A stretch of DNA of 64,000 bases from Nonomuraea roseoviolacea subsp. carminata (lineage in GTDB: Bacteria; Actinomycetota; Actinomycetes; Streptosporangiales; Streptosporangiaceae): positions 6,975,001 to 7,039,000 of the forward strand of contig NZ_JAMZEC010000001.1 of the NCBI RefSeq assembly GCF_024172185.1, read 5' to 3'. Shown here one piece after another: positions 47,757 to 64,000 of this stretch. The first letter of the stretch is position 1. Every line of letters starts with the position of its first letter. The notes under the pieces were generated by a model. That model saw nothing but the letters and a program-made list of their open reading frames with translations. It searched no databases and had not been told where the DNA came from. The position numbers and the translations under genes are program-made.

Positions 47757-49103
47757 ATGTCGCCACGTGTACTACTTTTTGCTGATCGTGTTCTTCCGGA
47801 TCGTGCGGTGCGGCCGCGCGGGGCGCGCATGGTCGTCATGGTTGCGGCGGTGGCTGCCGTCGGCCTGGCGGTGACGGCCGGTGCGTCCGCCGCCGGCGAG
47901 CAGCGCACCGAGCAGCGCACCGAGCAGCGCATCGAACAGAGCGCCGACCTGCGCGCCGACCTGCGCGCCGAGCAGCGTGCTGAGCTGCGGCGGCTGGCGC
48001 GCGAGCTGGTGGACGCCGGGGCGCCCGGCGTGATCGTACGGGTGGACGACGGCCGCGGCACGCCGGTCGAGATCGCCGAACAGGCCCCCTGGACCAGGCC
48101 GGACCACCTGCTCAAGGCGGGCGACGAGTACCGGATGGGGTCCAACACCAAGACCATGATGGCCACGCTCGCGCTGCGACTGGTCGCCGAGGGCAGGCTC
48201 GCCCTGACCGACCCGGTGGAGAAGTGGCTGCCGGGCAAGGTCCCCGGCGGTGCGGCGATCACGTTGCGCATGCTGCTCAACCACACCAGCGGCCTGTACG
48301 ACTACACCGAGGACCCCGCGATCCGGCCGTCGTTCCTCGGCGCGGACCGCCGGCGATGGACCTCGGCGCGGCTGCTCGCCCTGGGCGTGAAGCACGCTCC
48401 GCTGTTCCCGCCGGGGACGCGATGGTCGTACAGCAACACCAACTACGCCGCGGTCGGCGCCGTCCTGGAGCAGGCCACCGGGACGAGCCTGGCCGACCTG
48501 GTCCGGGACCGGATCGCCCGGCCGCTCGGCCTCCAGCACACCTACTACGCCACCGGCCCCGCCTGGCGCGGCCCCTACGCCCGCGGCTACGAACCGGACG
48601 CCGCCCACATGCCGCCGCGCGTGCCGGCCGCGTTCCGGAACGTCGCGGGGCCGCGCCATCACGGGCACGTGGACGTCTCCGGCAACGACCCCGGGTGGGG
48701 TGGTGCGGCGGGGGCGGTGGTGTCCACGGCGGGGGACTGGTCGCGCTTCTCCCGGGCGCTGATGTCCGGCCGGCTGCTGCCCGCCGCCCAGCTCGCGCAG
48801 CTGCGCACCACCGTGCCGGTGGACCCGGAGCGGCCGGACGGGCCCGGATACGGGCTCGGCGTCCAGACCGCCATTCATCCGTGCGGCACGTTCTGGGGGC
48901 ACGACGGCGGCATGCCCGGCTACCTCACCGCCAACCTCACCGACCGCACCGGCGGCCGGACGGCGAGCGTTCTCGTGACGACGGAGTTCTGGTCCGAGTT
49001 CGGGGCCGACCCGAAGATCGCCAAGGCTGCCGGGGCGCTGCAGACCGCCGCGATCTGCGCCATGTTCGGCAAGCCCGCACCGACCGCGGCTCACTTCAGG
49101 TGA
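47757..49103 (+). CDS. Secreted serine hydrolase, beta-lactamase/D-Ala-D-Ala carboxypeptidase family
   Basis: A 448-residue class C beta-lactamase-family protein. A basic start and hydrophobic stretch (MVVMVAAVAAVGLAVTAGASA) form a signal or membrane anchor. A short charged repeat EQRTEQRTEQRIEQ/ADLRADLRAEQRAEL follows, then the catalytic domain. The Ser-x-x-Lys motif is SNTK in RMGSNTKTMMATLALRL, Tyr-x-Asn is in RWSYSNTNYAAVG and the third motif is HDG in WGHDGGMPGY. It may act on cell-wall peptides. ATG at 47757 has GGAGG before it. The end overlaps the convergent SARP gene by 13 bases. Confidence 0.88.
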   Translation: MSPRVLLFADRVLPDRAVRPRGARMVVMVAAVAAVGLAVTAGASAAGEQRTEQRTEQRIEQSADLRADLRAEQRAELRRLARELVDAGAPGVIVRVDDGRGTPVEIAEQAPWTRPDHLLKAGDEYRMGSNTKTMMATLALRLVAEGRLALTDPVEKWLPGKVPGGAAITLRMLLNHTSGLYDYTEDPAIRPSFLGADRRRWTSARLLALGVKHAPLFPPGTRWSYSNTNYAAVGAVLEQATGTSLADLVRDRIARPLGLQHTYYATGPAWRGPYARGYEPDAAHMPPRVPAAFRNVAGPRHHGHVDVSGNDPGWGGAAGAVVSTAGDWSRFSRALMSGRLLPAAQLAQLRTTVPVDPERPDGPGYGLGVQTAIHPCGTFWGHDGGMPGYLTANLTDRTGGRTASVLVTTEFWSEFGADPKIAKAAGALQTAAICAMFGKPAPTAAHFR

Positions 49104-52100
49104 CCGGTGCGGTGGGCTCCGGGGACGGTGATGGTCGCGGACACCAGGGCTTCGGCCTCGGCCCGCGACATCGCCGCACCCGCGGCCCGCGCGGACGCGA
49201 AGCCGGCGGCGCCGAGGGCGTCGGTGGCCCGTTGCGCGATCACGAGCGCGTCGGCGTCGCCGGGGTCGTCCCAGCCTCGCAGCGCGCCGGCGGCCCCGAG
49301 CAGTCGTCCCGCCTGCTCCGCCCGCCCACGGGCCAGCTCGGTCGCGGCGGCCGCGACCGCTACCGAGGCCGCGACCGGCGTGTGCCAGGTGAGCGTCAGG
49401 CGCACCGCCGGGTGGTCGAGCCGGCGCAGCGCCTCGTCCGGTGAGCCGTCGGCGGCGTCCGCATGGGCGAGCACGCTCAGCAGCAACGCGGTCAGGTGCG
49501 GGGTGGACCGGCCGGGTGACGCCTCGGTCAGGCCGGTCCGGGGCGTGTTCGCGGGCCGCGCCCGGCCGCCCGGCCCGCCACTCCAGCCGTGCCAGGCCGA
49601 GCCGGACCTGGACCAGCGACTCCGCCGACCCGGTCCGCCCGGCCTGGTCGAGCAGGTCCGACAGCCGTCGCCGCCCGCCGTCCACGTCTCCTGCTCGGGC
49701 CAGGTGCAGGGCGGCCGCCACCTCGTTCTCCATCGTGTGCTCGGCCATGCCGAGCTCCTGGAAACAGCGGGTGGCCCGCTCGGCCGGCTCGGGCGCGCCT
49801 CTACCGGGTTCACCCGACCGCAGCAGCGCCGACTGCAGGGTGCTCAGCGTGGTCGCCAGGCCCCATCGTTCGCCCACCTCCTCGAAGCCGGTCAGCGCCC
49901 GCCTCAGCACGTGTGTCGCCTCGGCGGCGTGCCCGGTGTTCATGGCCAGCACGCCTTGGAGCAGCAACGACAGCGACCGGCTCCACGTATCGGCCGACCC
50001 GTCCGGCGAGCCGAACGCGTGCGGGTGGGGCGACTCCTCCTGGGAGTCGAGGACGTTCTGTTCGGCTCGATCGCGGCCCGCGCCTATGGCGAGCGCCAAC
50101 CGGGCCATCTCCACCACGGGATGGCTGCCGGGAACCGCGTGGTCCAGCGCCTCCCGGATGCGGTCGAAGGCCGCTCGCGCCTCCTCCGGACGGCTGATGA
50201 CCTCGGTCGTGGCGAGGGCGTGCGCGGCGAGCACCAGCGCGCGTGACCGCGGTTCGGACGGACCGCGTACCTGGAGAATCCGGCCGAGCAGGTCCAGCGA
50301 CTCCGGCGGGTGGTCCCGCAGGAACCAGAACCAGCACAGCGCGGCCCCGAAGCGGACCGCCAGGCCCGCGTCGCCGGACTCGACCGTCCAGCGGATCGCG
50401 GCCGACAGGTTGTCCCGTTCCGCGGACAGGCGGGCCAGCCAGCGCAGTTGGTCTGACGTGCGCAGGTGCGGGTCGGCGGTCTCGGCCAGCCGTAGGAAGA
50501 ACCTGGCGTGCCGCGCGCGTACGGCGTCGACCTCGTCGCGCTGGGCCAGCCGTGCGAGGCCGTACTCCCGGATGGTCTCCAGCATGCGGTAGCGCGGCTC
50601 TACCGGGTCGGCGGGCTCCACCGGGTGCAACAGGGACTTGTCGGCCAGCGCCGCCAGCAGCTCCCGGACGTCTCCCGGTCTGCTGGTCGCCTCCGTCGCG
50701 GGTGCGGTGCAGCCGTCCCATCCGCCGATCGCCGCCGCCGCGTCCTCCGTGAAGCCGCCGGGTACGACCGACAGCCGTTCCAGCAGCATCCGATCCTCGC
50801 CGTCGAGCAGGTCCCAGCTCCAGGACACCGCCGCGTCCAGGGTCCTGTGCCGTGGCAGCGCGGTGCGGCTGCCGCCGGTGAGCAGCCGGAACCGGTCGTC
50901 CAGCCGGGCCGCGACCGCCTCGACCGGCAGGGTGCGCAGGCGCGCCGCGGCCAGTTCGATCGCCAGCGGCAGGCCGTCCAGGCGGCGGCAGATCTCCACC
51001 GCCGCCGCGAGCGCGGTGCCCTCCAGCGCGAAGTCCGGTCGCACCGCGGCGGCCCGGTCACGAAACAGCCGGACCGCCGCGGCCCGCTCGGCCGTCGCCC
51101 CCGGTTCGGGCAGCTCCAGCGGGAGCACCGGGTGCAGGGTCTCGCCGTCGATCCGCAGCGGCTCCCGGCTGGTGGCCAGCACACGGAGGCGCGGGCAGCG
51201 GCCGAGCAGGGCCGCGGCGAGCCTCGCGGCGGCCTCGATCACGTGCTCGCAGTTGTCCAGCACCAGCACCAGCTCGTCGTCCGCGAGCGTCTCGGCCAGG
51301 TGGTCCACGGCCGCCCCGGGGGTGACGGGCCGCGCGGGGACGCCGTGCTCGCGCGCCCGTAACAGGTCGAGCACCACGCGGGGCACGTCCTCGGCGCCGG
51401 CCGGTGCCAGCGGGACGAACCACACCCCGCCGGACGGCGTCAGCCGCCGGCAGACGGCGCCGGCCAGCCGGGTCTTGCCCGCTCCCGCGGGCCCGACCAG
51501 CGTGACCAGCCGGACCCGGCCGAGCAGGCCGGTCACGCGGCGGACGTCGTCGTCGCGGCCGACGAAGCTGGTGAGCGGGACGTCCAGGTTGCCGTGCGTG
51601 CGGCGGGGGAGCCGGGGGCGTTCGCGGAGCTCGCCGCGCAGCACCGCCAGGTGGGCCTCCTGGAGCCGCGGTCCGGGGTCGCTGCCGAAGCTGTCCGCCA
51701 GCAGGCCGCGGATCCGCTCGTACGCGGCCAGCGCCTCGGCGCCGCGCCCGTTCAGCGCCAGGGCTCGGACGAGCTGGGCGTGCAGCCGTTCGCGCAACGG
51801 GTGCGCGGCGGCCAGGGACTCCAGCTCGGCCACCAGGTCGGGGTCGGCGCCCAGCGCGAGGTCGGCCTCGACCCGGTCCTCCAGGGCGGACAGGCGGGCC
51901 CGTTCGAGCCGTTCGGCGTCGGCGGCGGCGAAGGGCGCCTCGCGCACGTCCGCGAGGGCCGGTCCGCGCCACAGGCCCAGGGCCTCGCGCAGGGTGGCGG
52001 CGGCCTCCGCGGGCCGGGACAGGGCGAGCGCGCGCCGGCCCGCGCGGGCCAGCCGCTCGAATCGGACGGCGTCCACCGCCTCCGGCTCGACGGCCAGCCG

Positions 52101-52433
52101 GTATCCGGCCGGGCCCGAGGTGAGCAGCCCGGGGTCGCCCAGAACGCCCCGCAGCCGGGACGCCAGCGACTGCAACGCGTGCAGGTGGCCGGCCGGCTCG
52201 GTCTCACCCCACAGCGCTTCCACCAGGGTCGCCGGCTGGACGGACCGCCCGGCGTCGAGCGCCAGGCGGGCCAGCAACGCCCGCAGCCGCGCGCCGCCGA
52301 CCCGCGCAGGGCCGGCGGCGGCAGCAGTGGCACTGGCAGCGGCGCTGGCGCTGGAGGTTTCCAGCGTCAGGGGACCGAGGATGCCGACCCGCACCCGTCC
52401 GCCGTCGCCGCCCGGCCCGCTCGCGTCCGTCAT
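49091..52433 (-). pseudogene. SARP-family (AfsR-like) regulator interrupted by a one-base frameshift
   Basis: Starts at ATG 52433. Residues 1-255 are an OmpR-like DNA-binding and BTAD region (VRVGILGPLTLE, LALDAGRSVQPATLVEALWG, LHALQSLASRLRGVLGD). An NB-ARC ATPase follows, with LVTLVGPAGAGKTRLAGAVCRRL, LVLVLDNCEHV and RLRVLATSREPLRI, then helical TPR-like parts. Near 49541 the reading frame leaves normal sequence. The remainder continues in another frame to 49091 (TPHLTALLLSVLAHADAADG and SRAEAEALVSATITVPG). Removing one C from the run at 49540-49543 joins them. Either a genuine inactivation or a sequencing error. SARPs usually activate secondary metabolism. Confidence 0.75.
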
Positions 52434-52508
52434 GGCCCCGGAGTCTGTCAGACGCCGTTGCCGGCTCGGCGGCGGGCGCGCGTCACCACCAGGGACCGTC
52501 ACAAGCCG

Positions 52509-53477
<969 letters not shown>

Positions 53478-53541
53478 GCGCTCAACCCTATGACGGACAT
53501 GTTTCTGCAGAATTGCGGCCCCGTGGTGTCCGAACCAGGCC

Positions 53542-54843
53542 ATGTTCTTTACAGGCGCCGATCAATCGGGTCGATTAGAGAGAGGGGCGGACCGGGCGTC
53601 AGGCGGGGGGCGGGTGTACGGCACAGGGAACGGGTTCGCGTCCCGGTTGCGCTCGGCGGTCGTCACTCCCATGTCCCCGTTGGTGCTGGGCCGGGTCGTG
53701 CTGACGGCGGGGCTGGCGGGCGTGACCGCGCCGGTCCAGGCCGCGCTCTCGGCGGGCGGGTTCGCGGCGGGGAGGCTCCCGGCGGGAGAGGCGGTGGCGG
53801 GCGGGCCGGGATGGGCGCTCGCCGGGGCGGCGGCGCTGCTGGCGCTGCTGGCCGTGCACGCGCGGTTCCTGCTCGGGGTGCTGGCGCGCCGCGAGGGCGG
53901 GTGGTGGCTGGTCGGGGCGCAGGCGTGGCTGACGTACCTGCCGATGCCGTGGTACGGCGCGGCGTGGACGCCGGTGTGCGGGCTGCTGTCGGGCGCGCTG
54001 CTCGTCGTCGCGTACCGGATCCGGTCGTCGGCGCTGGTGGCGCTCGCGGTGGCGTGCGGCCCGGTGCTGCTGTGGGCGCCGCCGGGCGCCCTGGACCACA
54101 CCGGCTGGGCGGTGGCGGCGCCGGCGCTGGGGCTGGCCGAGTACGCCGTGGTGACGCTCGCGGCGCGGGCGCACTGGCTGGCCGGCGCGCGCAACGACGT
54201 CATCGAACGGGCGGTCGCGCTGGAGCGCCGCCGGTTCACCCGCGACCTGCACGACCTGGTGGGACACCGGCTGGCGGTCCTGGTGCTGAAGGCGCAGCTC
54301 GTGGAGCGGCTGGTGCGGGAGGGCGATCCCAAGGCGCGGACGGAGGCGGGGGAGACGCTGGAGCTGCTGCGCGTCCTCGCCTCGGACGTGCGCGCCGTCG
54401 CCCACGGCGCGGGGCACGCGTCGCTGGAGAGCGAGCTGGCGTCGGCGCGCGCCCTGCTGGAGTCGGTGGGGGTGCGCTGTGACGTACGGGTGTCGTGCCG
54501 TGAGATGCCGGGGGAGGTGTCCGAGGCGCTCGTGCACGTGCTGCGCGAGGGGGTGACGAACATCCTGCGGCACGCGGCGGCGCGGCGGTGCGTGATCAGG
54601 CTGGACGAGCAGGACCGGCTGATCCGGCTGTCGATGAGGAACGACGGCGTCCGCCCGGGACGGCGCCGGGACGGCGACGGCGGGCACGTTCGCCGGGACG
54701 GCGACGATGGGCACGGGTTGATGAATCTCACGGAGCGGGTCGCGCTGCTCGGCGGGTGGCTGGAGACGGAGACCAGAGGCGGTGAATTCGCTTTCTCGGC
54801 TTTCGTTCCGCGGGCCCATCGTGACCGTTTAACCAGCGTTTGA
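53542..54843 (+). CDS. NarL-type sensor histidine kinase next to the lanthipeptide genes
   Basis: A 433-residue kinase. About six hydrophobic segments (residues 45-210) form a membrane sensor. The HisKA_3 domain reads RRFTRDLHDLVGHRLAVLVLKAQL with His237 as acceptor. The ATPase domain has HVLREGVTNILRHAAARRCVIRL and GDDGHGLMNLTERVALLGG. No regulator gene is adjacent on the left; the nearest is the LuxR-type regulator at the right end of the cluster. The start is uncertain: ATG 53542 or one of several later codons. It may sense an envelope cue and switch on lanthipeptide production. Confidence 0.82.
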   Translation: MFFTGADQSGRLERGADRASGGGRVYGTGNGFASRLRSAVVTPMSPLVLGRVVLTAGLAGVTAPVQAALSAGGFAAGRLPAGEAVAGGPGWALAGAAALLALLAVHARFLLGVLARREGGWWLVGAQAWLTYLPMPWYGAAWTPVCGLLSGALLVVAYRIRSSALVALAVACGPVLLWAPPGALDHTGWAVAAPALGLAEYAVVTLAARAHWLAGARNDVIERAVALERRRFTRDLHDLVGHRLAVLVLKAQLVERLVREGDPKARTEAGETLELLRVLASDVRAVAHGAGHASLESELASARALLESVGVRCDVRVSCREMPGEVSEALVHVLREGVTNILRHAAARRCVIRLDEQDRLIRLSMRNDGVRPGRRRDGDGGHVRRDGDDGHGLMNLTERVALLGGWLETETRGGEFAFSAFVPRAHRDRLTSV

Positions 54844-54960: not shown

Positions 54961-57624
54961 ATGGACCAGTATGAGCTGTACTGCCTGGCAGACAGCCATT
55001 TCTACGACACACTCGGCCACACCGCGGCCGAGGAGTCGGGCTTCTCCATCCTGCGCCGGCCGCTCCCCGAGGGCTGGGCCCACGAGGTGACCGGCACCTG
55101 GTGCTATTACGCCGCCACCGGCCAGCCGCCGCTGCCCCGCCAAGGCTGGAAGATCCACGTCTCCGCCCGCCGCGACGACGCCGAACGGGCCATCGCCGCC
55201 GTGTGGGAATACTGCGTCCCCCGCGGAATCGCCTTCAAGTTCCTGCGCGGCCCGGCCGTTCACGTGATGGTCAATTCCAAGGCCGCCTCCCGCGCCTCCA
55301 GCGGGAAACTCGTCACCATATACCCGCGTGACGAGGCGCAGCTCGAACTCGCCCTCAAGGAGCTCCACGAACTCCTGCGCGGCGTCAAGGGCCCGTACGT
55401 CCTCAGCGACCTGCGCTACGGCGAGGGCCCGCTCTACGTCCGTTACGGCGGTTTCGCCGAACGGCACTGCCTGTCGGGCGGGGGCGAGCGGGTGCTGGCC
55501 GTCGAGGACGGCGACGGCCGGCTCGTGCCCGACGTGCGCGGGGCCACGTTCACCGTGCCGCCGTGGACGACCCTGCCCGCCTTCCTGGAGCCCCACCTGG
55601 CCGCCCGCAACGCGGTCACGACGACCGGCCTGCCGTACGAGATCGAGCAGGTCCTGCACTTCTCCAACGGCGGCGGCGTCTACCTGGCCCGCCACCGCGC
55701 CACCGGCGAGCGGCTGGTACTGAAGGAGGCGCGCCCGCACGCCGGCCTCGACGCCGCCGGGCGCGACGCGGTCACCCGGCTCGCCCACGAGCGCGACGTA
55801 CTGGAACGCCTGGCCGGCCTCGACGCGGCGCCCGCGCTGCGCGACCACTTCACGCTCGGCGAGCACCACTTCATCGTGACCGAGTTCGTGGACGGCACGC
55901 CGCTCCAGCGCCGCCTCGTCCACCGCTACCCGCTGACGCGGGCCACCTGCGGGCCCGACGACGTCGCCGCGTACACCCGCTGGGCGCTCGCCACGCTCCA
56001 CCAGGTGGAGGAGGCCGTCGAGGCGCTGCACGCGCGCGGCGTCGTCTTCGGCGACCTGCACCCCGACAACGTGCTGCTCACCGACGGCGGGCGCGTGGTG
56101 CTGATCGACTACGAGGTCGCCACGCTCGTCGGCGACGGCGCGCGCTCCGCGCTGGCCCACCCCGCGTTCGCCGCGCCGCCGGACCGGCAGGGGGTGGACG
56201 TCGACAGGTACGCGATGGCATGCCTGCGGTTCGGGCTGTTCGCCCCGCAGTGCACGATCATGCTGCCGCTGCACCGCGCCAAGATCCACCAGCTCGCCGA
56301 GCTGGTCGCCGAGCACTTCCCGGGAACGGCGGACATGGCCCGCGCCGCCGCGGCCACCATCGCCGGGCCCGGAGGGCCCGCCGCTGCCCGCCCCGAGGTG
56401 GCTACCCTCGCCGGCCCCGGGGTGCCCGCCACCGCCCGCCCCGACGTGGCCGCCGTCGCGCGCCCCGCGGTCCCGTCCGCTGACGTCGCGGACCGCCTGC
56501 CCGTGCCGGGGTTCGCGCCCTGGCCCGATCTGCGCGACGCGATGTGCCGGGCCATCACCGCCTCCGCCACCCCCGAACGCGACGACCGGCTCTTCCCCGG
56601 CGACGTCGCCCAGTTCCGCCCCGGCGGCGGGCTCAACCTCGCCCACGGCGCCGCCGGCGTCCTGCTCGCGCTCACGGCCACCGGCGCCGGCCGGTTCCCC
56701 GCGTACGAGGAATGGCTGCGCGAACGGGCGCTGCGGCCCGCCCAGGGGTCGGGGCTCGGCCTGTACGACGGGCTGCACGGCGTCGCGTACGTCCTCGACC
56801 GGCTGGGACGCCGCGAGGACGCCCTCGACCTGGCCTCCGCCTGCTTACGCGAGCGATGGGAGGGGCTGGAGTCCGCCCTCCACTCCGGACTGTCCGGGAT
56901 CGGGCTGAGCCTCCTGCACCTCGGCGACCCCGACCTGACCCGGGCCGCGCTGCGCGCCGCCGACATCTGCGCCGACCGGCTCGGCGGCCCCGCCGACGTC
57001 CCCGAGACCAGCGGCGGCGACAACCCCCGCGCCGGCCTCATGCACGGCTCCAGCGGCCCCGCCCTGCTCTTCCTGCACGCCTACGAGCACACCGGCGACA
57101 CCGCGCTGCTCGACCTGGCCGCCACCGCGCTCCGGCAGGACCTGCGCCGCTGCGCCACCGCCCAGGACGGCTCCCTCCAGGTGAACCAGGGCTGGCGGCT
57201 TCTTCCGTACCTCGACGAGGGATCGGCGGGCATCGCCCTCGTCCTCGCCCGCTACCTCGGCCACCGCGACGACCCCGAGCTCGCCGAGGCGCTGCCCCGG
57301 CTGCGGCGGGCCGGCCACGCCGGCTACTACGTCCAGCCCGGGCTGTTCACCGGACGGGCCGGCATCGTCGCCGCCCTCCCGGAGGGCGACCCCGACACCG
57401 ATCGCCTCGTCAAGGGGCTGCGCTGGCACGCGCTGCCGTTCGCTGGCGGCCTCGCCTTCCCCGGCGACCAGCTGCTGCGGCTGTCGATGGACTTCGCGAC
57501 GGGCACCGCGGGTGTCCTGTTCGCGCTCGGCTCGGTGCTGGGCGACACGCCCACGCACCTGCCCTTCCTGGAGCCGGCCCCGCAGGGACGGCCCCACCAC
57601 CCCGACACGCGGAAGGAGGTGTGA
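54961..57624 (+). CDS. lanKC: Class III lanthionine synthetase LanKC
   Basis: An 887-residue three-domain enzyme. Residues 1-210 are the phospho-Ser/Thr lyase domain. Residues 220-440 form a kinase (Lys255 in LVLKEARP; GDLHPDN with Asp365; LIDYE with Asp383 in place of DFG). A Pro/Ala repeat linker (residues 455-520) leads into the LanC-like cyclase (LYDGLHGVAYVL, GLMHGSSGPALLFLH near 694, GLFTGRAGIVAAL). The Cys/Cys/His zinc ligands of class I, II and IV cyclases are missing, which marks class III. ATG 54961 follows GGGAGG. The stop is 3 nt before lanA, which carries two ring motifs. Confidence 0.93.
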   Translation: MDQYELYCLADSHFYDTLGHTAAEESGFSILRRPLPEGWAHEVTGTWCYYAATGQPPLPRQGWKIHVSARRDDAERAIAAVWEYCVPRGIAFKFLRGPAVHVMVNSKAASRASSGKLVTIYPRDEAQLELALKELHELLRGVKGPYVLSDLRYGEGPLYVRYGGFAERHCLSGGGERVLAVEDGDGRLVPDVRGATFTVPPWTTLPAFLEPHLAARNAVTTTGLPYEIEQVLHFSNGGGVYLARHRATGERLVLKEARPHAGLDAAGRDAVTRLAHERDVLERLAGLDAAPALRDHFTLGEHHFIVTEFVDGTPLQRRLVHRYPLTRATCGPDDVAAYTRWALATLHQVEEAVEALHARGVVFGDLHPDNVLLTDGGRVVLIDYEVATLVGDGARSALAHPAFAAPPDRQGVDVDRYAMACLRFGLFAPQCTIMLPLHRAKIHQLAELVAEHFPGTADMARAAAATIAGPGGPAAARPEVATLAGPGVPATARPDVAAVARPAVPSADVADRLPVPGFAPWPDLRDAMCRAITASATPERDDRLFPGDVAQFRPGGGLNLAHGAAGVLLALTATGAGRFPAYEEWLRERALRPAQGSGLGLYDGLHGVAYVLDRLGRREDALDLASACLRERWEGLESALHSGLSGIGLSLLHLGDPDLTRAALRAADICADRLGGPADVPETSGGDNPRAGLMHGSSGPALLFLHAYEHTGDTALLDLAATALRQDLRRCATAQDGSLQVNQGWRLLPYLDEGSAGIALVLARYLGHRDDPELAEALPRLRRAGHAGYYVQPGLFTGRAGIVAALPEGDPDTDRLVKGLRWHALPFAGGLAFPGDQLLRLSMDFATGTAGVLFALGSVLGDTPTHLPFLEPAPQGRPHHPDTRKEV

Positions 57625-57627
57625 ACC

Positions 57628-57759
57628 ATGGTGCTTCTCGACCTGCAGGGCCTCGAGTCCCCGGCGAGCAGCGACGTCGCCAGCGGCGGCTCCACGCTCA
57701 CCGTGCTGGGCTGCCACTCCGGCGCTCCCAGCAACCTGAGCGTCGCGGTCTGCCACTGA
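57628..57759 (+). CDS. lanA: Class III lanthipeptide precursor peptide (LanA), 43 residues
   Basis: A 43-residue peptide with GGAGG at 57615-57619, starting 3 nt after lanKC. The leader has the L-x-L-Q recognition motif (L4-D5-L6-Q7) and an acidic residue (E10). The core (from about residue 20) has two class III ring motifs: S22-x-x-T25-x-x-x-C29 and S35-x-x-S38-x-x-x-C42, each Cys followed by His. This matches the S-x-x-S/T-x(2-5)-C consensus for labionin or lanthionine, as in SapB and labyrinthopeptin. Pro12 in the leader is a candidate cut site for the adjacent peptidase; Pro34 lies between the rings. Confidence 0.9.
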   Translation: MVLLDLQGLESPASSDVASGGSTLTVLGCHSGAPSNLSVAVCH

Positions 57760-57769
57760 CCCGCGACAT

Positions 57770-57813
57770 CGGTGATCCCCGCGCCGCCGCTCTCGTCGGC
57801 GCGGGGATCACCG
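57770..57813 (+). terminator. 17-bp perfect hairpin after lanA (partial terminator)
   Basis: Seventeen bases at 57770-57786 (CGGTGATCCCCGCGCCG) pair exactly with 57797-57813 around a 10-nt loop, followed by TTTTT at 57823-57827. It starts 10 nt after the lanA stop and 46 nt before the first transporter gene. A leaky terminator or RNA stabiliser here would raise precursor mRNA above transporter mRNA, a usual arrangement in lanthipeptide operons. Confidence 0.8.
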
Positions 57814-57859: not shown

Positions 57860-59788
57860 GTGCGGGCCGGAGACCGGCTGGTGATGGACGCGGTACGGCG
57901 CGGCGGGTCATGGCCCGTGGTGCTGGCCGTCACGGCCGTCGCCGGGGCCGCCGCCGAGCTGGCCCTGCCGTACGCGGCGGGCCGCACCGTCGACGCCCTC
58001 ACCGGATCGCTCGCGGGCGGGACCACGGCTTCTTCCGACGGCGTTCTCACCGGGCTCATGGAAGCTTTCGCGGGCCGCGCCGGGGGCTGGCTGGTCGCCT
58101 GCGTCGCGCTCGTCGCGTGCGTCATGCTGTGCGAGAGCGTCGGCGTGTGGGCGCGCGGCGCGAGCGGCGCCCGCGCCGCGGCCCTGCTCCGGCTCCGGGT
58201 GCTGCGCCACGTGCTCGGCGCCGGGCCCGCCGCCACCCGCCGCTTCCCCGAGGGTGAGCTGGCCACCCGGGCCGGGCTCAACGCCGAGGAGGCGGGCCGC
58301 GCCCCGGAGACGGTCACCGGCGCGCTCGCGCTGCTCGTCCCGACGGCCGGCGCGCTCGTCGCGCTCACCCTCATCCACCCCGTCCTCACCGTCGCCCTGG
58401 CCGCCGGGATCGTCCTCGTGCTGTTGGTGCTGCGCGGGTTCCTCCGTACGACGACGGCCATCGCGGGCGGGTACCAGGAGGCGCAGGGCGAGATCGCCGC
58501 CCGGCTCGTCGGCGCCCTGGACGGCGCCCGCACCATCGCGGCGGCGGGCACCGCCGGCCGCGAGGCCGACCGCGTCCTCGCGCCCCTGGAGAAGTTGCGC
58601 CGGCACGGCCTGGCCCTGTGGCGGGCGAACGCCTCGGCCGGTGTCCGCGCCGGGCTGGTCGTGCCGCTGGCCGAGGTGGCGGTGCTGGCGGCGGGCGGGC
58701 TTCTGCTGGCCTCGGGCGAGCTGACGGTGGGGGAGCTGTACGCGGCGGCGAGGTACGCGGTGCTGGGGTCGGCGCTCAGCACGGGGCTGGGACTGGCCGG
58801 GGCGCTGGCCCGGGCCCGCTCGGCTGGCGCCCGCCTGGCCGACCTCCTCGCGATCCCGCGTCCCGCTCACGGCTCCCGCTCTCCCGCCGGTCCGCCCACC
58901 GCCTCCGCCGCTTCGGACGGGAGGACGCCTTCGGACGGGGAGACGCTGCCGTTGGGCGGCGTGCTGGACGGGGGGTCGGGCACGCTGGAGTTCCGCGGGG
59001 TTGCGGCGCACGGGCTCTCGGTCGGGGACCTCGTCATCCCCGGCGGGTCGGTGACGGCGGTCGTGGGACGCTCGGGCTCGGGCAAGTCGCTGCTCACCGC
59101 GCTGGCGGCCCGCCTGCTCGACCCCGAGCGCGGGACGATCCTCCTGGACGGCGTGCCGCTGCCCGAACTCTCGCACGACGCGCTGCGGCGCGCGATCGGC
59201 TGCGCCTTCGACCGGCCCGTGCTGGTCGGCGACACCATCGGCGACGCCATCGCCCTCGGCCTCCCTGGCGCGGCGCCGGATGCCGCGACGTCCGAAGCCC
59301 CGGGCGCGGCGCCGGGGGCCGTCGTGGCGGCGGCAGCGGCGGCCAGGGCCGACGGTTTCGTGCGGCGGCTGCCCCAGGGGTACGCCACCCCCATCCCCGA
59401 CGCGCCCCTGTCCGGCGGCGAACGGCAGCGGATCGGCCTGGCCCGCGCCTTCGCCCAGGCCGGACGCCTGCTCGTCCTGGACGACGCCACCAGCAGCCTC
59501 GACACCGTCACCGAACGCCAGGTGGGCCGGGCCCTCACCGCCGACCCCGCCGGCCGCACCCGCCTGATCGCCGCGCACCGCGTCGCCACGGCCGCCCGCG
59601 CGAGCCTGGTCGTCTGGCTGGACGACGGCACCGTACGCGCCACGGGAACCCACGCCGACCTCTGGCACGACCCGTCGTACCGCGCGGTCTTCCAGGACCC
59701 GGCCCCCGACCAGGAGACCCCGGAGGTCCACGAGGCTCCCGAGAACCAGATCCCCCGGCGGGCGGTCGTCCAGGAGAAGACCCCATGA
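57860..59788 (+). CDS. ABC exporter half-transporter 1 of the lanthipeptide cluster
   Basis: A 642-residue protein with an N-terminal membrane domain of about six helices (residues 15-310) and a C-terminal ATPase. Walker A is GRSGSGKS (Lys409), the signature LSGGERQRIGLARAFA and Walker B LLVLDDATSSLD. A Pro/Ser-rich linker joins the domains. GTG at 57860 has GGGAGGCGGGG upstream. It overlaps the second half-transporter by 4 nt; the two likely form a heterodimer like RamA/RamB. No peptidase C39 domain is present, so the leader is removed by another enzyme. Confidence 0.9.
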   Translation: MRAGDRLVMDAVRRGGSWPVVLAVTAVAGAAAELALPYAAGRTVDALTGSLAGGTTASSDGVLTGLMEAFAGRAGGWLVACVALVACVMLCESVGVWARGASGARAAALLRLRVLRHVLGAGPAATRRFPEGELATRAGLNAEEAGRAPETVTGALALLVPTAGALVALTLIHPVLTVALAAGIVLVLLVLRGFLRTTTAIAGGYQEAQGEIAARLVGALDGARTIAAAGTAGREADRVLAPLEKLRRHGLALWRANASAGVRAGLVVPLAEVAVLAAGGLLLASGELTVGELYAAARYAVLGSALSTGLGLAGALARARSAGARLADLLAIPRPAHGSRSPAGPPTASAASDGRTPSDGETLPLGGVLDGGSGTLEFRGVAAHGLSVGDLVIPGGSVTAVVGRSGSGKSLLTALAARLLDPERGTILLDGVPLPELSHDALRRAIGCAFDRPVLVGDTIGDAIALGLPGAAPDAATSEAPGAAPGAVVAAAAAARADGFVRRLPQGYATPIPDAPLSGGERQRIGLARAFAQAGRLLVLDDATSSLDTVTERQVGRALTADPAGRTRLIAAHRVATAARASLVVWLDDGTVRATGTHADLWHDPSYRAVFQDPAPDQETPEVHEAPENQIPRRAVVQEKTP

Positions 59789-61497
59789 CCGCCGCGCGCC
59801 GCGGCACCGCGACCGCGCCCCTCCGGCGGGCGTTGCGACGGCACCCCTCCCAGCTCGCCCGCATCGCCGCCTGGTCGGCCCTGGAGGCCGTGCCCGCGTT
59901 CCTCATCGGGCACGCCGTGGCCCGCGCCATCGAGGACGGCTTCGCGGCGGGCCGCCCCGGCACCGGCCTGGCGTGGCTGGCCGCGCTCGGCGCGGCGTGG
60001 CTGGTCGCCGCCGTCGCCGCGCGCCAGATCGTGCTCGCCGTGGCCGCCGTCGCCGAACCGTTCCGCGACGACCTGCTCGCCGTCGTCGTCCACGGCGCCG
60101 TACGCCGGGCCGCCGCCACGGCCGGCGCGCGGCGGGACAGCGCCGCCGTCACCCGCGCCGGACTCCAGGTCGAGCTGGCCAGGGACGCGTTCGCGGCGGT
60201 GGTGACGACGGTCAGGGGATTCTTGTTCACCGTGGTCAGCGTCGTGCTCGGCCTGCTCACGCTGGCGCCGGGCGCGGCGGCGCTGGTGCTGCCGCCGTTC
60301 GCCGCCGGGCTGGGACTGTTCCTGGCGTCGCTGCCGGCGCTGGCGCGCAGGCAGCGCGCGTTCCTGATGGCCGACGAGCGGCTCGCCGAGGCGACGACCG
60401 CCACGATGGGCGGGCTGCGCGACATCGCCGCCTGCGGCGCGGAGCGGCGGGAGGGCGACCGGCTGGCGGCGCGCGTCGCGGAACAGGCCGCGGCGGCGCG
60501 CGCCCTGGCCCGCGTCACGGCGGTCCGCACGGCCGCGCTGGCCGTGGGCGGGTGGCTGCCCGTCCTGCTGCTCCTCGCCGGGACGCCGTGGCTGCTGCGC
60601 GGCGGGGCCGGCGCGGGCGTCGTGGTGGGCGCGCTGGCGTACGTCACCCAGTCGCTCGCGCCCGCGCTCGGCGGGCTCGTGCAGGGCCTCGGCGTCAGCG
60701 GCGTGCGGCTGGCGGCGACGCTGGACCGCATCGCCGCCTCGGGAGCGGACGAGGAACCGCCGGTCCCGCGGCTGCGGCCCGCGGGCGCGGAGGTCCGGCT
60801 GAGCGGGGTCACGTTCGCGTACGGGCCGCACGCGCGGCCGGTCGTGGCGGACCTCGACCTGCGCGTCCCGGAAGGGGAGCACCTGGCGGTGGTCGGGCCC
60901 AGCGGGGCGGGCAAGTCCACGCTGGCGGCCCTCGTCAGCGGCCTGCTGCGGCCCGGCGCGGGGGAGGCGCTGATCGGCGGGGTCCCGGCCGCGTGCGCGG
61001 ACCCGTCCGCCCGGGTCCTCATCCCCCAGGAGGCGTACGTCTTCCGCGGCACCCTCCGCGACAACCTCACGTACCTGGCGCCGGAAGGAGTCCCGGAAGA
61101 GGATCTGGGCCGGGCCGTGGCGGCGCTCGGGGCGGAGGACCTGGTGGAGGCGGCCGGCGGGTACGACGCGCCGCTCGACCCCGCCGCCCTGTCCGCCGGG
61201 CGGCGTCAGCTCGTCGCCCTCGTCCGCGCCTACCTGTCGCCCGCCCGCCTCGTCGTCCTCGACGAGGCCACGTCCTGCCTCGACCCGGCCGCCGAGGCGC
61301 GGGTGGAGCGGGCCTTCGCCCGGCGCGGCGGCACGCTCGTCGTGGTCGCGCACCGCATCACCTCCGCGCGGCGCGCCGGCCGCGTCCTGCTCATGGACGG
61401 GCCGGACGTGCGCACCGGCACGCACGACGAGCTCGTCCGCACCGCCCCCCTGTACGCCGACCTGGTCGGCCACTGGCAACCGGAGCCCGTTTCATGA
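59785..61497 (+). CDS. ABC exporter half-transporter 2 of the lanthipeptide cluster
   Basis: A 570-residue half-transporter. Six helices lie in residues 25-310 and the ATPase has Walker A GPSGAGKS, an unusual signature LSAGRRQLVALVRAYL where LSGGQ is expected, and Walker B LVVLDEATSCLD. The altered signature suggests one weak ATP site in the heterodimer, as seen in many asymmetric exporters. ATG 59785 overlaps the first half-transporter; its own stop overlaps the prolyl oligopeptidase (ATGA), so the whole set is coupled. Confidence 0.9.
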   Translation: MTAARRGTATAPLRRALRRHPSQLARIAAWSALEAVPAFLIGHAVARAIEDGFAAGRPGTGLAWLAALGAAWLVAAVAARQIVLAVAAVAEPFRDDLLAVVVHGAVRRAAATAGARRDSAAVTRAGLQVELARDAFAAVVTTVRGFLFTVVSVVLGLLTLAPGAAALVLPPFAAGLGLFLASLPALARRQRAFLMADERLAEATTATMGGLRDIAACGAERREGDRLAARVAEQAAAARALARVTAVRTAALAVGGWLPVLLLLAGTPWLLRGGAGAGVVVGALAYVTQSLAPALGGLVQGLGVSGVRLAATLDRIAASGADEEPPVPRLRPAGAEVRLSGVTFAYGPHARPVVADLDLRVPEGEHLAVVGPSGAGKSTLAALVSGLLRPGAGEALIGGVPAACADPSARVLIPQEAYVFRGTLRDNLTYLAPEGVPEEDLGRAVAALGAEDLVEAAGGYDAPLDPAALSAGRRQLVALVRAYLSPARLVVLDEATSCLDPAAEARVERAFARRGGTLVVVAHRITSARRAGRVLLMDGPDVRTGTHDELVRTAPLYADLVGHWQPEPVS

Positions 61498-63485
61498 AAT
61501 ATCCGGACGCGCCGCGTCTGCCGCACATCGACCACCTCCACGGCCACGAGGTCGCCGACCCGTACCGCTGGCTGGAGGACCCCGCCACCTCCGGAACCCG
61601 CGCCTGGCAGCAGGCCCAGGACCGGCTGTGGCGCGAGCACGCCGCCGCGCTGCCGCTGCGCGACCGGTTCGAGGCGCGCCTGATGGAGCTGAGCGCCGCC
61701 GGCCTGGTCACGCCGCCGCTGTGGCGCGGCGGGCGCCGCTTCCACCTGGCCCAGTCCGCGGGGCAGGAGCACCCGGTGCTGCACCTCGACGGCGTGCCGG
61801 TCCTCGACCCGTCGGCGCTCGACCCGTCGGGCCTGACCACGCTCGACGGCTGGCAGCCGGACCACGACGGCCGCCTGCTCGCCTACCAGGTGTCCCGGCG
61901 CGGCGACGAGCGCGCCGACCTGCTCGTCCTCGACCTGGACACCGGCCGGCCGGTGGACGGCCCGATCGGCGGCTGCCGCTACTCGCCGGTCGCGTGGCTG
62001 CCCGGCGGCGACGCCTTCTACTACGTCCGCTTCCGCCGCGGCGTCTACCTGCACCGCCTCGGCGACCCGGCCGACGTGGAGGTGTTCACGCGGGGCGCCG
62101 TCGCGTACGGGCTGCAGACCAGCGGCGACGGCCGGTGGCTGACCATCACCGCGGGCACCCGGGCGGGCAACGGCGCCTGGCTGGCCGACCTGTCCGCCGG
62201 CGACCCCGCCCGGCTCGACCCGCGCCCCGTCCACGAAGCGGGACGCGAGCGGGACGCCCGCACCGAGGCGGCCGTCGGCCCCGACGGCCGCCTCTACGTC
62301 CTGACCGACCAGGACGCCCCGCGCCGCAGGCTCTGCGTCGCCGACCCGGCGGAACCGTCGGCGTGGAAGGAGCTGATCCCGGAGGACGGGGCGGCGGTGC
62401 TGGGCGCGTTCACCGTCCTGGACGGCGACCGGCTGCTCGTCGCCCGCACCCGCCACGCCGTCGGCGAGATCGGCGTCCACGACGCGGCCACGGGGGAGCG
62501 GCTGGCGGAGGTGCCCCTGCCGGGCAGCGGCACCGTCACCGCCCTGACCGCGCGTCCGGACGGCGGCCACGAGGCGTGGTTCGGCTACACCGACGCCGTG
62601 ACCCCCGCCGAGGTGTGGCGCTACGACGCCCGCGACGGCGCCGCGACCCGCTGGGCGACCGCGCCCGGGCACGTGCCGTTCACGGAGGTGGAGAGCCGGC
62701 ACGTCGAGTACACCTCCGCCGACGGCACGCGCGTGCGCATGGTGGTCTCCGCCCTGCCCGGCCGTGACGGGCCGCGGCCGGCGATCCTCACCGGGTACGG
62801 CGGGTTCGGGGTGCCGCTCACGCCCGCGTACGCCGCCGACTCGCGCGCCTGGGTGGAGGCGGGCGGCGTCCTCGCCGTGGCGCAGCTGCGCGGGGGCGGC
62901 GAGGAGGGGGAGTCCTGGCACCGCGACGGCATGCTGGGCCGCAAGCAGAACGTCTTCGCCGACTTCGAGGCCGCCGCCGAGAAGCTGGTCGCCGACGGCT
63001 GGACGGAGCCGGGCCGCCTGGCGGCCTGGGGCGAGTCGAACGGCGGCCTGCTCGTCGGCGCCGCCCTGACCCGCCGCCCCGACCTGTTCGCCGCCGTCAT
63101 CTGCTCGGCCGGGCTGCTCGACATGGTCCGCTACGAACGCTCCGGCCTCGGCGCCTCCTGGGCGACGGAGTACGGCACGGCCGCCGACCCGGAGCAGCTC
63201 GCCTGGCTGCTCGGCTACTCGCCCTACCACCACGTCCGCGAGGGGGTCGCGTACCCGGCGACGCTCTTCACGGTCTCGGGCGGCGACTCGCGGGTGGACC
63301 CGATGCACGCCCGCAAGATGTGCGCGGCCCTCCAGGCGGCGACGACGGGGGAGGGGCCGGTGCTGCTGCGCCACGACCCCGACGTCGGCCACGGCGCCCG
63401 CGCGGTCAGCCGCTCGGTCGCGCTCGCCGCCGACGTCCTCGCCTTCGCCGCCGCCCACACCGGCCTCACTCCGACGACCGACTGA
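61494..63485 (+). CDS. Prolyl oligopeptidase, probable lanthipeptide leader peptidase
   Basis: A 663-residue S9A-type peptidase. The N-terminal part begins with the family HGHEVADPYRWLEDP and forms a beta-propeller (residues 80-390). The hydrolase domain has the triad Ser515 in GESNGGLL, Asp598 in GGDSRV and His633 in DVGHGAR. YGGFGVPLTP and GGGEEGESWHRDG are conserved. It is fused by overlap to the exporter genes. A prolyl oligopeptidase in class III clusters (FlaP of Kribbella) removes the leader after Pro, which fits Pro12 of the LanA here. No signal peptide, so it acts in the cytoplasm. Confidence 0.9.
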   Translation: MKYPDAPRLPHIDHLHGHEVADPYRWLEDPATSGTRAWQQAQDRLWREHAAALPLRDRFEARLMELSAAGLVTPPLWRGGRRFHLAQSAGQEHPVLHLDGVPVLDPSALDPSGLTTLDGWQPDHDGRLLAYQVSRRGDERADLLVLDLDTGRPVDGPIGGCRYSPVAWLPGGDAFYYVRFRRGVYLHRLGDPADVEVFTRGAVAYGLQTSGDGRWLTITAGTRAGNGAWLADLSAGDPARLDPRPVHEAGRERDARTEAAVGPDGRLYVLTDQDAPRRRLCVADPAEPSAWKELIPEDGAAVLGAFTVLDGDRLLVARTRHAVGEIGVHDAATGERLAEVPLPGSGTVTALTARPDGGHEAWFGYTDAVTPAEVWRYDARDGAATRWATAPGHVPFTEVESRHVEYTSADGTRVRMVVSALPGRDGPRPAILTGYGGFGVPLTPAYAADSRAWVEAGGVLAVAQLRGGGEEGESWHRDGMLGRKQNVFADFEAAAEKLVADGWTEPGRLAAWGESNGGLLVGAALTRRPDLFAAVICSAGLLDMVRYERSGLGASWATEYGTAADPEQLAWLLGYSPYHHVREGVAYPATLFTVSGGDSRVDPMHARKMCAALQAATTGEGPVLLRHDPDVGHGARAVSRSVALAADVLAFAAAHTGLTPTTD

Positions 63486-63495
63486 GCCGGAAGGG

Positions 63496-64000
63496 TCAGA
63501 TCCAGCCGGACTCGCGGGCGATGCGGATCGCGTCGATGCGGCTGCGGGCGCCGAGCTTGGAGGTGGTGCGGTGCAGGTAGTTGCGGACCGTTCCCTCCGA
63601 CAGGAACAGCGAGGCCGCGATCTCCGCCACCGGGGCGCCCTCGGCCGCCGCACCGATCACGTCGAGCTCCCGGGGCGTCAGCGGGGGCTCCAGCGGTCTC
63701 ATCGCGGCGATGGCCAGCTCGGAGTCGATGACCCGCTCGCCGGCGGCCACCCGGCGGATGGCGTCGGCGAGCTGGTGCGGCGGCGCGTCCTTGGCCATGA
63801 AGCCGCGCACGTGCACGTCCAGCGCCCGCCGCAGCAGGCCGGGCGTGCCGACGCCGGTCAGGATGAGGACGCCGCAGTGCGGCAGCTCCTCGTGCAGCTC
63901 CCCGGCCGCCTCCAGGCCGTCCTTGCCGGGCAGGGAGACGTCGATGACGGCCACGTCGGCCCCGGAGGAGCGGGCGGCGGGGACGATCCTGTCCCCCCGG
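63496..64000 (-). CDS. NarL/LuxR-family response regulator (partial, N-terminus outside window)
   Basis: About 168 residues visible. Receiver remnant: VAVIDVSLPGKDGLEAAGEL with the phospho-acceptor Asp, LILTGVGTPGLLRRALD, and FMAKDAPPHQLADAIRRVAAG with the conserved Lys. The C-terminal LuxR HTH is LTPRELDVIGAAAEGAPVAEIAASLFLSEGTVRNYLHRTTSKLGARSRIDAIR. The gene runs convergent to the peptidase with 10 nt between stops. It may pair with the sensor kinase at 53542, or with a kinase beyond the edge. RamR, activator of SapB, is of the same type. Confidence 0.9.
   Translation of the reverse strand, partial: RGDRIVPAARSSGADVAVIDVSLPGKDGLEAAGELHEELPHCGVLILTGVGTPGLLRRALDVHVRGFMAKDAPPHQLADAIRRVAAGERVIDSELAIAAMRPLEPPLTPRELDVIGAAAEGAPVAEIAASLFLSEGTVRNYLHRTTSKLGARSRIDAIRIARESGWI

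What the first reader, a model, noticed from the sequence alone, without database searches (positions are those of the whole stretch)
57628..57759. Hidden 43-residue class III lanthipeptide precursor with two S-x-x-S/T-x-x-x-C rings
A small gene squeezed between lanKC and the exporters has an ideal ribosome site, a short leader with L-D-L-Q, and two evenly built ring motifs (S22/T25/C29 and S35/S38/C42) separated by a short hinge with Pro34. Each Cys is followed by His, which I do not recall from SapB, labyrinthopeptin or NAI-112. Thr25 in ring one would give a methyl-labionin or methyl-lanthionine. It fits the class III consensus but the core looks new.
Basis: partly seen in the sequence, partly recalled or inferred. 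Interest (0 to 1): 0.92.

Follow-up and report, generated by a model that had tools for sequence, protein, structure and literature searches.

The report
Nonomuraea flavipeptin-type SapB-family lanthipeptide precursor
The small gene is real, but it is an ordinary member of a large known family of ring-bearing peptides (SapB/AmfS class III lanthipeptides), of the kind made together with a proline-cutting protease, and close versions of it occur in many related soil bacteria.

Summary
The 43-residue gene at 57628-57759 is real. It passes the curated cut-offs of Pfam RamS (44.4 against 24.3 bits) and NCBIfam SapB/AmfS (45.7 against 25), is full-length in 34 of 54 held genomes of its genus, Nonomuraea, and evolves under purifying selection (pN/pS 0.19). 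'The core looks new' is not supported: 80 distinct precursors share its layout (S-x-L-T-xxx-C-xxxx-P-S-x-x-S-xxx-C-H), also in Kribbella, the genus of flavipeptin, whose POP FlaP is reported to cut after leader Pro(-12). The C-terminal Cys-His is invariant in that group; His after the first Cys is frequent mainly in Nonomuraea. Best reading: LanKC closes two rings, the POP cuts after leader Pro12, other proteases trim, and the exporters release a SapB-like hydrophobic peptide; ring chemistry, cut site and role are inferred. Hinge Pro34 tracks the POP almost perfectly (27 both, 17 neither, 1 hinge alone among 45 decidable new loci), but that is one gain and one joint loss on the tree, shared with the C-terminal His, so it does not show a cut there.

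The parts
53542..54843 (+). Histidine kinase (433 aa) directly upstream of lanKC
   Evidence: Pfam HisKA_3 E 3.4e-12 and HATPase_c E 7.7e-6; a homolog lies at the same place in the genus loci read. That it belongs to the system is inferred from position.
54961..57624 (+). lanKC, class III lanthionine synthetase (887 aa): RamC N-terminal, kinase and LanC-like domains
   Evidence: NCBIfam NF038151 1067.9 bits, cut-off 575; Pfam RamC_N, Pkinase, LANC_like
57611..57619 (+). Ribosome-binding site GGAAGGAGG of lanA, 8 bases before the ATG
   Evidence: Read; GGAGGTG in 30 of 30 genus loci
57628..57759 (+). lanA, 43-aa precursor: leader with LLDLQ and Pro12, ring motif 1 S22/T25/C29, hinge Pro34, ring motif 2 S35/S38/C42, C-terminal His43
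   Evidence: Pfam PF19402 and NCBIfam NF033212 over cut-off; 34 of 54 genus genomes; pN/pS 0.19 over 31 distinct genus sequences
57661..57663 (+). Codon of leader Pro12, the inferred POP cut site (10 residues before ring-1 Ser)
   Evidence: Present in 56 of 56 and 27 of 27 POP-bearing loci, but also in 27 of 48 and 13 of 18 without POP; Pro(-12) is the reported FlaP site (PMC10885120 passage)
57727..57729 (+). Codon of hinge Pro34, directly before ring-2 Ser35
   Evidence: Tracks the POP gene in 56 of 56 and 27 of 27 POP-bearing loci; without POP 0 of 48 and 1 of 18
57770..57813 (+). Hairpin (17-bp perfect stem, 10-base loop) between lanA and the exporter genes; probably a partial terminator or mRNA-stability element
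   Evidence: -46 kcal/mol, z -5.1; stem of 10 bp or more within 100 bases of lanA in 31 of 34 genus loci, shuffles reached 9 at most. Role inferred.
57860..59788 (+). ABC exporter 1 (642 aa), no peptidase domain listed
   Evidence: Pfam ABC_membrane E 3.5e-17 and ABC_tran E 6.2e-20, no C39 peptidase at E 0.1
59785..61497 (+). ABC exporter 2 (570 aa), no peptidase domain listed
   Evidence: Pfam ABC_tran E 3.6e-19 (no ABC_membrane match at E 0.1); NCBIfam exporter models over residues 25-561
61494..63485 (+). Prolyl oligopeptidase (POP, S9 family, 663 aa), FlaP-like; Ser515, Asp598, His633
   Evidence: Pfam Peptidase_S9_N and Peptidase_S9; solved prolyl endopeptidases, best E 7.3e-119; the three residues kept in 14 of 14 aligned relatives
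63496..64000 (-). LuxR-type response regulator (201 aa in L063; runs past the window end), like the regulator beside SapB-type clusters
   Evidence: Pfam GerE and Response_reg; homologs beside many of the other lanKC loci, 38-48% identical in the Streptomyces-family loci

Best explanation
The gene is lanA of a flavipeptin-type SapB/AmfS class III lanthipeptide operon of Nonomuraea. LanKC binds the leader (LLDLQ), phosphorylates and eliminates Ser22, Thr25, Ser35 and Ser38, and closes two rings on Cys29 and Cys42 (labionin/methyl-labionin or lanthionine, undecided). The POP of the operon then removes the first part of the leader by cutting after Pro12, other proteases trim residues 13 to about 21, and the ABC pair, which has no peptidase domain, exports a hydrophobic two-ring peptide. 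By family it most likely acts as a surface-active morphogen for aerial growth. Shown here: gene family, operon, conservation, POP with intact triad, kinship with the Kribbella precursors. Inferred: ring chemistry, cut site, trimming, export and role.
For: Family models over cut-off. Operon and POP. Close relatives in 34 of 54 genus genomes and in many other genera. 37 of 38 genomes of the Kribbella antiqua genus carry the same precursor type, with the leader Pro at -12 from ring-1 Ser in 24 of 31 loci read, which fits the FlaP site Pro(-12) in PMC10885120 (passage). Purifying selection, strongest in residues 1-12 (pN 0.028).
Against: FlaA's letters were not seen, so the tie to flavipeptin rests on genus, POP and the Pro(-12) spacing. 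Here the Pro stands at -10, not -12. The leader Pro is not specific to POP clusters (27 of 48 and 13 of 18 POP-less loci have it), while hinge Pro and C-terminal His are closer markers. PMC5719810 (passages) reports Brevibacterium clusters with weak flaP homologs of which only one of six precursors has a leader Pro. No expression, mass or activity data exist here; the morphogen role is by family alone.
Confidence: 0.8

Rival explanations
1. The POP cuts (also) after hinge Pro34, so that one precursor gives two one-ring peptides: an upper piece ending at Pro34 and the nonapeptide SNLSVAVCH with ring 2.
For: Hinge Pro occurs with POP in 56 of 56 and 27 of 27 POP-bearing loci and without POP in only 0 of 48 and 1 of 18, whereas the leader Pro is common without POP. 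POP and hinge Pro were lost together in Planomonospora sp. ID67723.
Against: The reported FlaP cut is at the leader Pro (PMC10885120 passage), although 31 of 31 Kribbella-genus precursors read carry the hinge Pro; the original FlaP paper was not available. Only two independent contrasts exist on the tree, p 0.5. The C-terminal Cys-His has nearly the same distribution, and in the one joint loss leader Pro and Cys-His are gone as well.
Confidence: 0.08
2. The POP acts at leader Pro12, and the hinge Pro is a structural turn between the rings that the POP or LanKC of this lineage has come to depend on, without being cut.
For: FlaP is reported to prefer the fully ringed substrate (PMC10885120 passage), so it must sense the core; hinge Pro is in 80 of 80 distinct precursors of the group, by its definition, and ring 2 reads SNLS in 76 of 80.
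Against: No direct test; co-inheritance in a single clade explains the same pattern.
Confidence: 0.35
3. The invariant C-terminal His is a crosslink or metal-binding residue, as in noursin (histidinobutyrine, copper).
For: C-terminal His in 80 of 80 distinct hinge-type precursors; the noursin cluster also has LanKC, a precursor and an S9 peptidase (PMC10206099 section 6).
Against: In noursin the His lies inside the ring, three residues after the Thr and four before the Cys; here both His follow the Cys. Residue 23 is Thr in 67 of 80 distinct precursors, Ser or Gly in the rest. NorKC enzymes form a group apart from RamC; this LanKC falls among RamC-type enzymes, though NorKC itself was not in the tree.
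Confidence: 0.03

Closest known systems
Flavipeptin (FlaA with the prolyl oligopeptidase FlaP, Kribbella flavida)
   Same: Class III, POP in the cluster, leader Pro; precursors of the Kribbella genus share the core layout, hinge Pro and C-terminal Cys-His; LanKC and POP of Kribbella loci are about 59-61% and 48-60% identical to the window's.
   Different: Leader Pro at -10 instead of -12; POP follows the two exporters (3.5-4.4 kb after lanKC in the Nonomuraea and relatives read) instead of following lanA directly (0.2-0.5 kb in Kribbella); His30 after the first Cys. FlaA's own letters were not seen.
SapB / AmfS (ramCSAB-ramR, amfTSAB-amfR of Streptomyces)
   Same: Pfam RamS and NCBIfam SapB/AmfS over cut-off, LanKC, LxLQ leader, two ring motifs, two ABC exporters, LuxR-type regulator.
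   Different: POP in the cluster, hinge Pro and C-terminal Cys-His; Streptomyces-family loci read have none of the three in this form. LanKC about 46-50% identical to theirs.
Durhapeptin and rochsin (labionin-type morphogens of Streptomyces)
   Same: Two S-x-x-S-x-x-x-C motifs, LLDLQ leader, hydrophobic core (PMC13380574, sections read).
   Different: No POP or hinge Pro mentioned for durhapeptin in the parts read; transporter with a cleavage site is proposed there.
Noursin (NorA/NorKC/NorP)
   Same: Class III with an S9 peptidase in the cluster; a His matters for the product (PMC10206099).
   Different: One Cys, His inside the ring, enzyme group distinct from RamC.

Membership tests
SapB/AmfS-family class III lanthipeptide | Precursor matches the curated family model over its cut-off | tested here: met
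   PF19402 44.4 bits (cut-off 24.3), NF033212 45.7 bits (cut-off 25)
SapB/AmfS-family class III lanthipeptide | Class III synthetase LanKC beside the precursor gene | tested here: met
   NF038151 1067.9 bits, cut-off 575, 3 bases upstream of the ribosome-site/start region
SapB/AmfS-family class III lanthipeptide | LxLQ leader motif and two S-x-x-S/T-x-x-x-C motifs | tested here: met
   L4-D5-L6-Q7, S22/T25/C29, S35/S38/C42
SapB/AmfS-family class III lanthipeptide | ram-like neighbourhood: ABC exporter pair and LuxR-type response regulator | tested here: met
SapB/AmfS-family class III lanthipeptide | Mature product with two thioether rings and morphogenetic activity | not testable with these tools
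   Needs mass spectrometry and a growth assay
Flavipeptin type (FlaP-processed) | POP gene in the cluster with intact catalytic residues | tested here: met
   61494-63485; Ser515, Asp598, His633; 14 of 14 relatives
Flavipeptin type (FlaP-processed) | Leader Pro at -12 from the core | tested here: inconclusive
   Leader Pro present, but at -10 here; -12 in 24 of 31 Kribbella-genus loci
Flavipeptin type (FlaP-processed) | Sequence kinship with FlaA itself | tested here: inconclusive
   Same type in 37 of 38 genomes of the Kribbella antiqua genus, but K. flavida's letters were not identified
Flavipeptin type (FlaP-processed) | POP cuts only the ringed precursor, after the leader Pro | not testable with these tools
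   Needs purified enzyme
Noursin type (LanKC-Hbt) | His inside the Cys ring, three residues after a Thr | tested here: not met
   Both His follow the ring Cys
Noursin type (LanKC-Hbt) | LanKC in the separate NorKC group | tested here: inconclusive
   Window LanKC lies among RamC-type enzymes; NorKC was not in the tree
Labyrinthopeptin / NAI-112 (labionin lanthipeptides) | Labionin or methyl-labionin crosslinks | not testable with these tools
   Cannot be predicted from sequence (PMC13380574)

The most novel reading that the evidence does not exclude
The POP cuts between the two rings after the hinge proline, so that a SapB-family precursor is split into two one-ring peptides; hinge proline and protease were gained together and lost together.
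Probability: 0.08. Interest if true: 0.6.

Novelty: new member of a known kind. Interest (0 to 1): 0.27.

Why it matters
It is one more cluster of a known, widespread family, so its worth is mainly in annotation. It shows POP-bearing, flavipeptin-type SapB-family clusters in Nonomuraea and many Streptosporangiaceae, beyond the four genera named in the passage of PMC8960859 that I read (Kribbella, Streptomyces, Amycolatopsis, Jiangella), and although PMC7268733 (passage) says that actinobacterial class III clusters usually hold no protease. The hinge-Pro/POP link gives one cheap, sharp test of where this protease cuts.

Tried and rejected
Chance ORF: rejected (family models, conservation, purifying selection). 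New core: rejected. Leader Pro as the POP-specific mark: rejected, because many POP-less relatives keep it. Hinge Pro as proof of a POP cut: not accepted, since the tree gives two contrasts only and the C-terminal His is distributed almost the same way. Histidinobutyrine as in noursin: position does not fit. FlaA of K. flavida: its paper and a review are not held. Print: searched for Nonomuraea with lanthipeptide and SapB, Streptosporangi- with lanthipeptide and prolyl oligopeptidase, and Nonomuraea with labionin; they listed 4, 0 and 2 papers, none with a title on this subject; those papers were not opened. Structure prediction was not used.

Results against the hinge link and rows left out: L263 (Streptomyces scabichelini) fits the hinge pattern without POP and lies outside the clade (LanKC 53%). 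L142 has a weak partial POP match (48% over 261 aa) and a one-ring precursor; it counts as POP without hinge and as no POP under the 400-aa rule. In the one joint loss (L161 = L205) leader Pro and Cys-His are gone too. 17 of 121 exploratory loci and 5 of 50 new ones were not counted (no precursor found or contig too short). 30 of 80 named loci were the same loci as in the exploratory set and were left out of the independent count. The hinge pattern was chosen after seeing the exploratory set, whose loci I picked by hand from hit lists. The tree used 102 of 121 loci, that used 101 of 171 (Nonomuraea thinned; LanKC under 55% identity left out except chosen outgroups).

Full report
WHAT IS THERE. 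The frame 57628-57759 encodes MVLLDLQGLESPASSDVASGGSTLTVLGCHSGAPSNLSVAVCH, with S22/T25/C29, S35/S38/C42, Pro34 and His after each Cys as described, and GGAAGGAGG ending 8 bases before the ATG. It passes the curated cut-offs of Pfam RamS (44.4 bits against 24.3) and NCBIfam SapB/AmfS (45.7 against 25). The own genome holds one RamS match, and 137 of 250 genomes searched in its family hold at least one. In the genus 34 of 54 held genomes have a full-length match; the same 34 have a close lanKC, so the cluster comes and goes as a unit. Over 31 distinct genus sequences mean pN is 0.07 and mean pS 0.38, ratio 0.19.

SURROUNDINGS. A histidine kinase (53542-54843), lanKC (54961-57624; NF038151 1067.9 bits, cut-off 575), lanA, two ABC exporters (57860-59788 and 59785-61497; no peptidase domain listed) and a prolyl oligopeptidase, POP (61494-63485), follow one another on the + strand; a LuxR-type response regulator lies behind on the - strand. 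The POP matches solved prolyl endopeptidases (best E 7.3e-119) and keeps Ser515, Asp598 and His633 in 14 of 14 aligned relatives. Between lanA and the exporters stands a hairpin with a 17-bp stem (-46 kcal/mol, z -5.1); 31 of 34 genus loci have a perfect stem of at least 10 bp within 100 bases after lanA, while mononucleotide shuffles (10 per locus) reached 9 at most.

RELATIVES. The nearest named record is Nonomuraea montanisoli (LanKC 93%, identical precursor); it is the same locus as G029, a genome of the window's own genus, so the genus is Nonomuraea. The same precursor type is found in Streptosporangium, Microtetraspora, Planomonospora, Herbidospora, Acrocarpospora, Actinomadura, Actinocorallia, Jiangella, Labedaea, Nocardioides, Microlunatus and Kribbella. 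Among hinge-type loci of both sets (L263 left out) there are 109 precursors at 89 loci, 80 distinct; all 80 end in Cys-His and have S-x-L-T and S-x-x-S ring motifs with Pro directly before ring 2 (the hinge Pro is part of the selection, the Cys-His is not). The residue after the first Cys is His in 22 of 80 distinct precursors and in 28 of 34 genus loci. The core layout is thus not new.

FLAVIPEPTIN. The review PMC10885120 (passages read) says that FlaP, a POP in the flavipeptin cluster, cuts after Pro(-12) and only efficiently when the rings are in place. PMC8960859 (passages) names Kribbella, Streptomyces, Amycolatopsis and Jiangella as genera with FlaP-like proteases. In the genus of Kribbella antiqua 37 of 38 genomes have a match to the precursor type, and in 24 of 31 loci read the leader Pro stands 12 residues before ring-1 Ser; 12 of 12 named Kribbella loci have the POP. 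I conclude, without having seen FlaA's letters, that flavipeptin is of this type and that the window holds its Nonomuraea relative. In the window the leader Pro stands 10 residues before ring-1 Ser.

HINGE PROLINE AND POP. In the exploratory set 56 loci have both POP and hinge Pro and 48 have neither by the stricter rule; by the looser rule one of these, L142, has a POP match without the hinge; 17 of 121 could not be decided. I wrote the prediction down and then ran the named scan. Of 80 named loci 52 have both, 22 neither, 1 the hinge alone, 5 undecidable. Thirty were already in the first set; of the 50 new ones 27 have both, 17 neither, 1 the hinge alone (L263), 5 undecidable. The leader Pro is in 56 of 56 and 27 of 27 POP-bearing loci but also in 27 of 48 and 13 of 18 without POP. 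The C-terminal Cys-His is in 56 of 56 and 27 of 27 with POP and in 3 of 48 and 1 of 18 without. On the LanKC trees the hinge/POP loci are one clade, beside a POP-less clade with C[TV]PHENSS cores, with a single joint loss in Planomonospora sp. ID67723, where leader Pro and Cys-His are gone too. POP and hinge Pro need two changes each, leader Pro six; two independent contrasts, both concordant, p 0.5. The link is real but cannot say which residue the protease needs.

MECHANISM. Most likely LanKC closes two rings, the POP cuts after Pro12, further proteases trim, and the ABC pair exports a hydrophobic peptide with a SapB-like role. Ring chemistry, cut site and role are inferred. PMC13380574 (abstract, Introduction, Discussion and part 1 of 2 of the Results read) reports four dehydrations for the S26T variant of a two-motif relative, and says that lanthionine against labionin is hard to predict from the synthetase. 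A hinge cut giving two one-ring peptides is not excluded, but the FlaP passage names only the leader cut although 31 of 31 Kribbella-genus precursors read carry the hinge Pro. PMC5719810 (passages) tells of Brevibacterium clusters with weak flaP homologs where only one of six precursors has a leader Pro, so POP and leader Pro need not go together everywhere.

OTHER IDEAS WEIGHED. Noursin (PMC10206099: abstract, passages and sections 6, 12, 13 read) also has an S9 peptidase and a functional His, but its His lies inside the ring and its enzyme group is apart from RamC. Here both His follow the Cys, and residue 23 is Thr in 67 of 80 distinct precursors.

VERDICT. A real gene of an ordinary, well-recognised kind: a new member of the flavipeptin type of SapB/AmfS class III lanthipeptides.

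Noticed in passing
L161 and L205 (same locus, Planomonospora sp. ID67723): Inside the hinge/POP clade this locus has lost POP, hinge Pro, leader Pro and C-terminal Cys-His at once; its precursor reads MALLDLQALESATKGGPDSTVSLLLCSHHDSTLSAVC and its LanKC runs on past the usual KEV end.
   Followed up: partly
window 57770-57813 and the same place in genus loci L063-L096: Strong hairpin between lanA and the exporters with differing stem sequences among species, perhaps a partial terminator.
   Followed up: partly
L103, L153, L156, L200 and others: Several tandem lanA copies per cluster in relatives, up to four in Streptosporangium subroseum (L200), while the Nonomuraea loci L063-L096 show one each.
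   Followed up: no
L180 (G199) and L181 (G064), downstream of lanKC: Two lanKC loci each followed by five different small precursors with FVLDLQ/YVLNLQ-like leaders; the last of each array has several ring motifs.
   Followed up: no
L139, L140, L210, L211 and other Jiangella and Kribbella loci: POP directly follows lanA (0.2-0.5 kb after lanKC), whereas in Streptosporangiaceae it follows the two exporters (3.5-4.4 kb), so POP stays linked through a gene-order change.
   Followed up: no
L266-L280 (Kribbella-genus genomes): The 45-aa precursor is letter-for-letter identical to the query in 15 of 38 genomes of the genus, a very strong conservation for a lanthipeptide.
   Followed up: no
L142 (G429) near the lanKC: Distant lanKC (38%) with a one-ring precursor MYVLALQELDEEIVVDAPFSSISYFACH, Pro just before the core and a partial POP-like match 4.6 kb away.
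   Followed up: no
window 47772-52502, minus strand: A 1576-aa BTAD/AAA regulator (SARP-like) upstream of the cluster, beyond an aldo/keto reductase (52509-53543, minus); no link to the cluster was tested.
   Followed up: no
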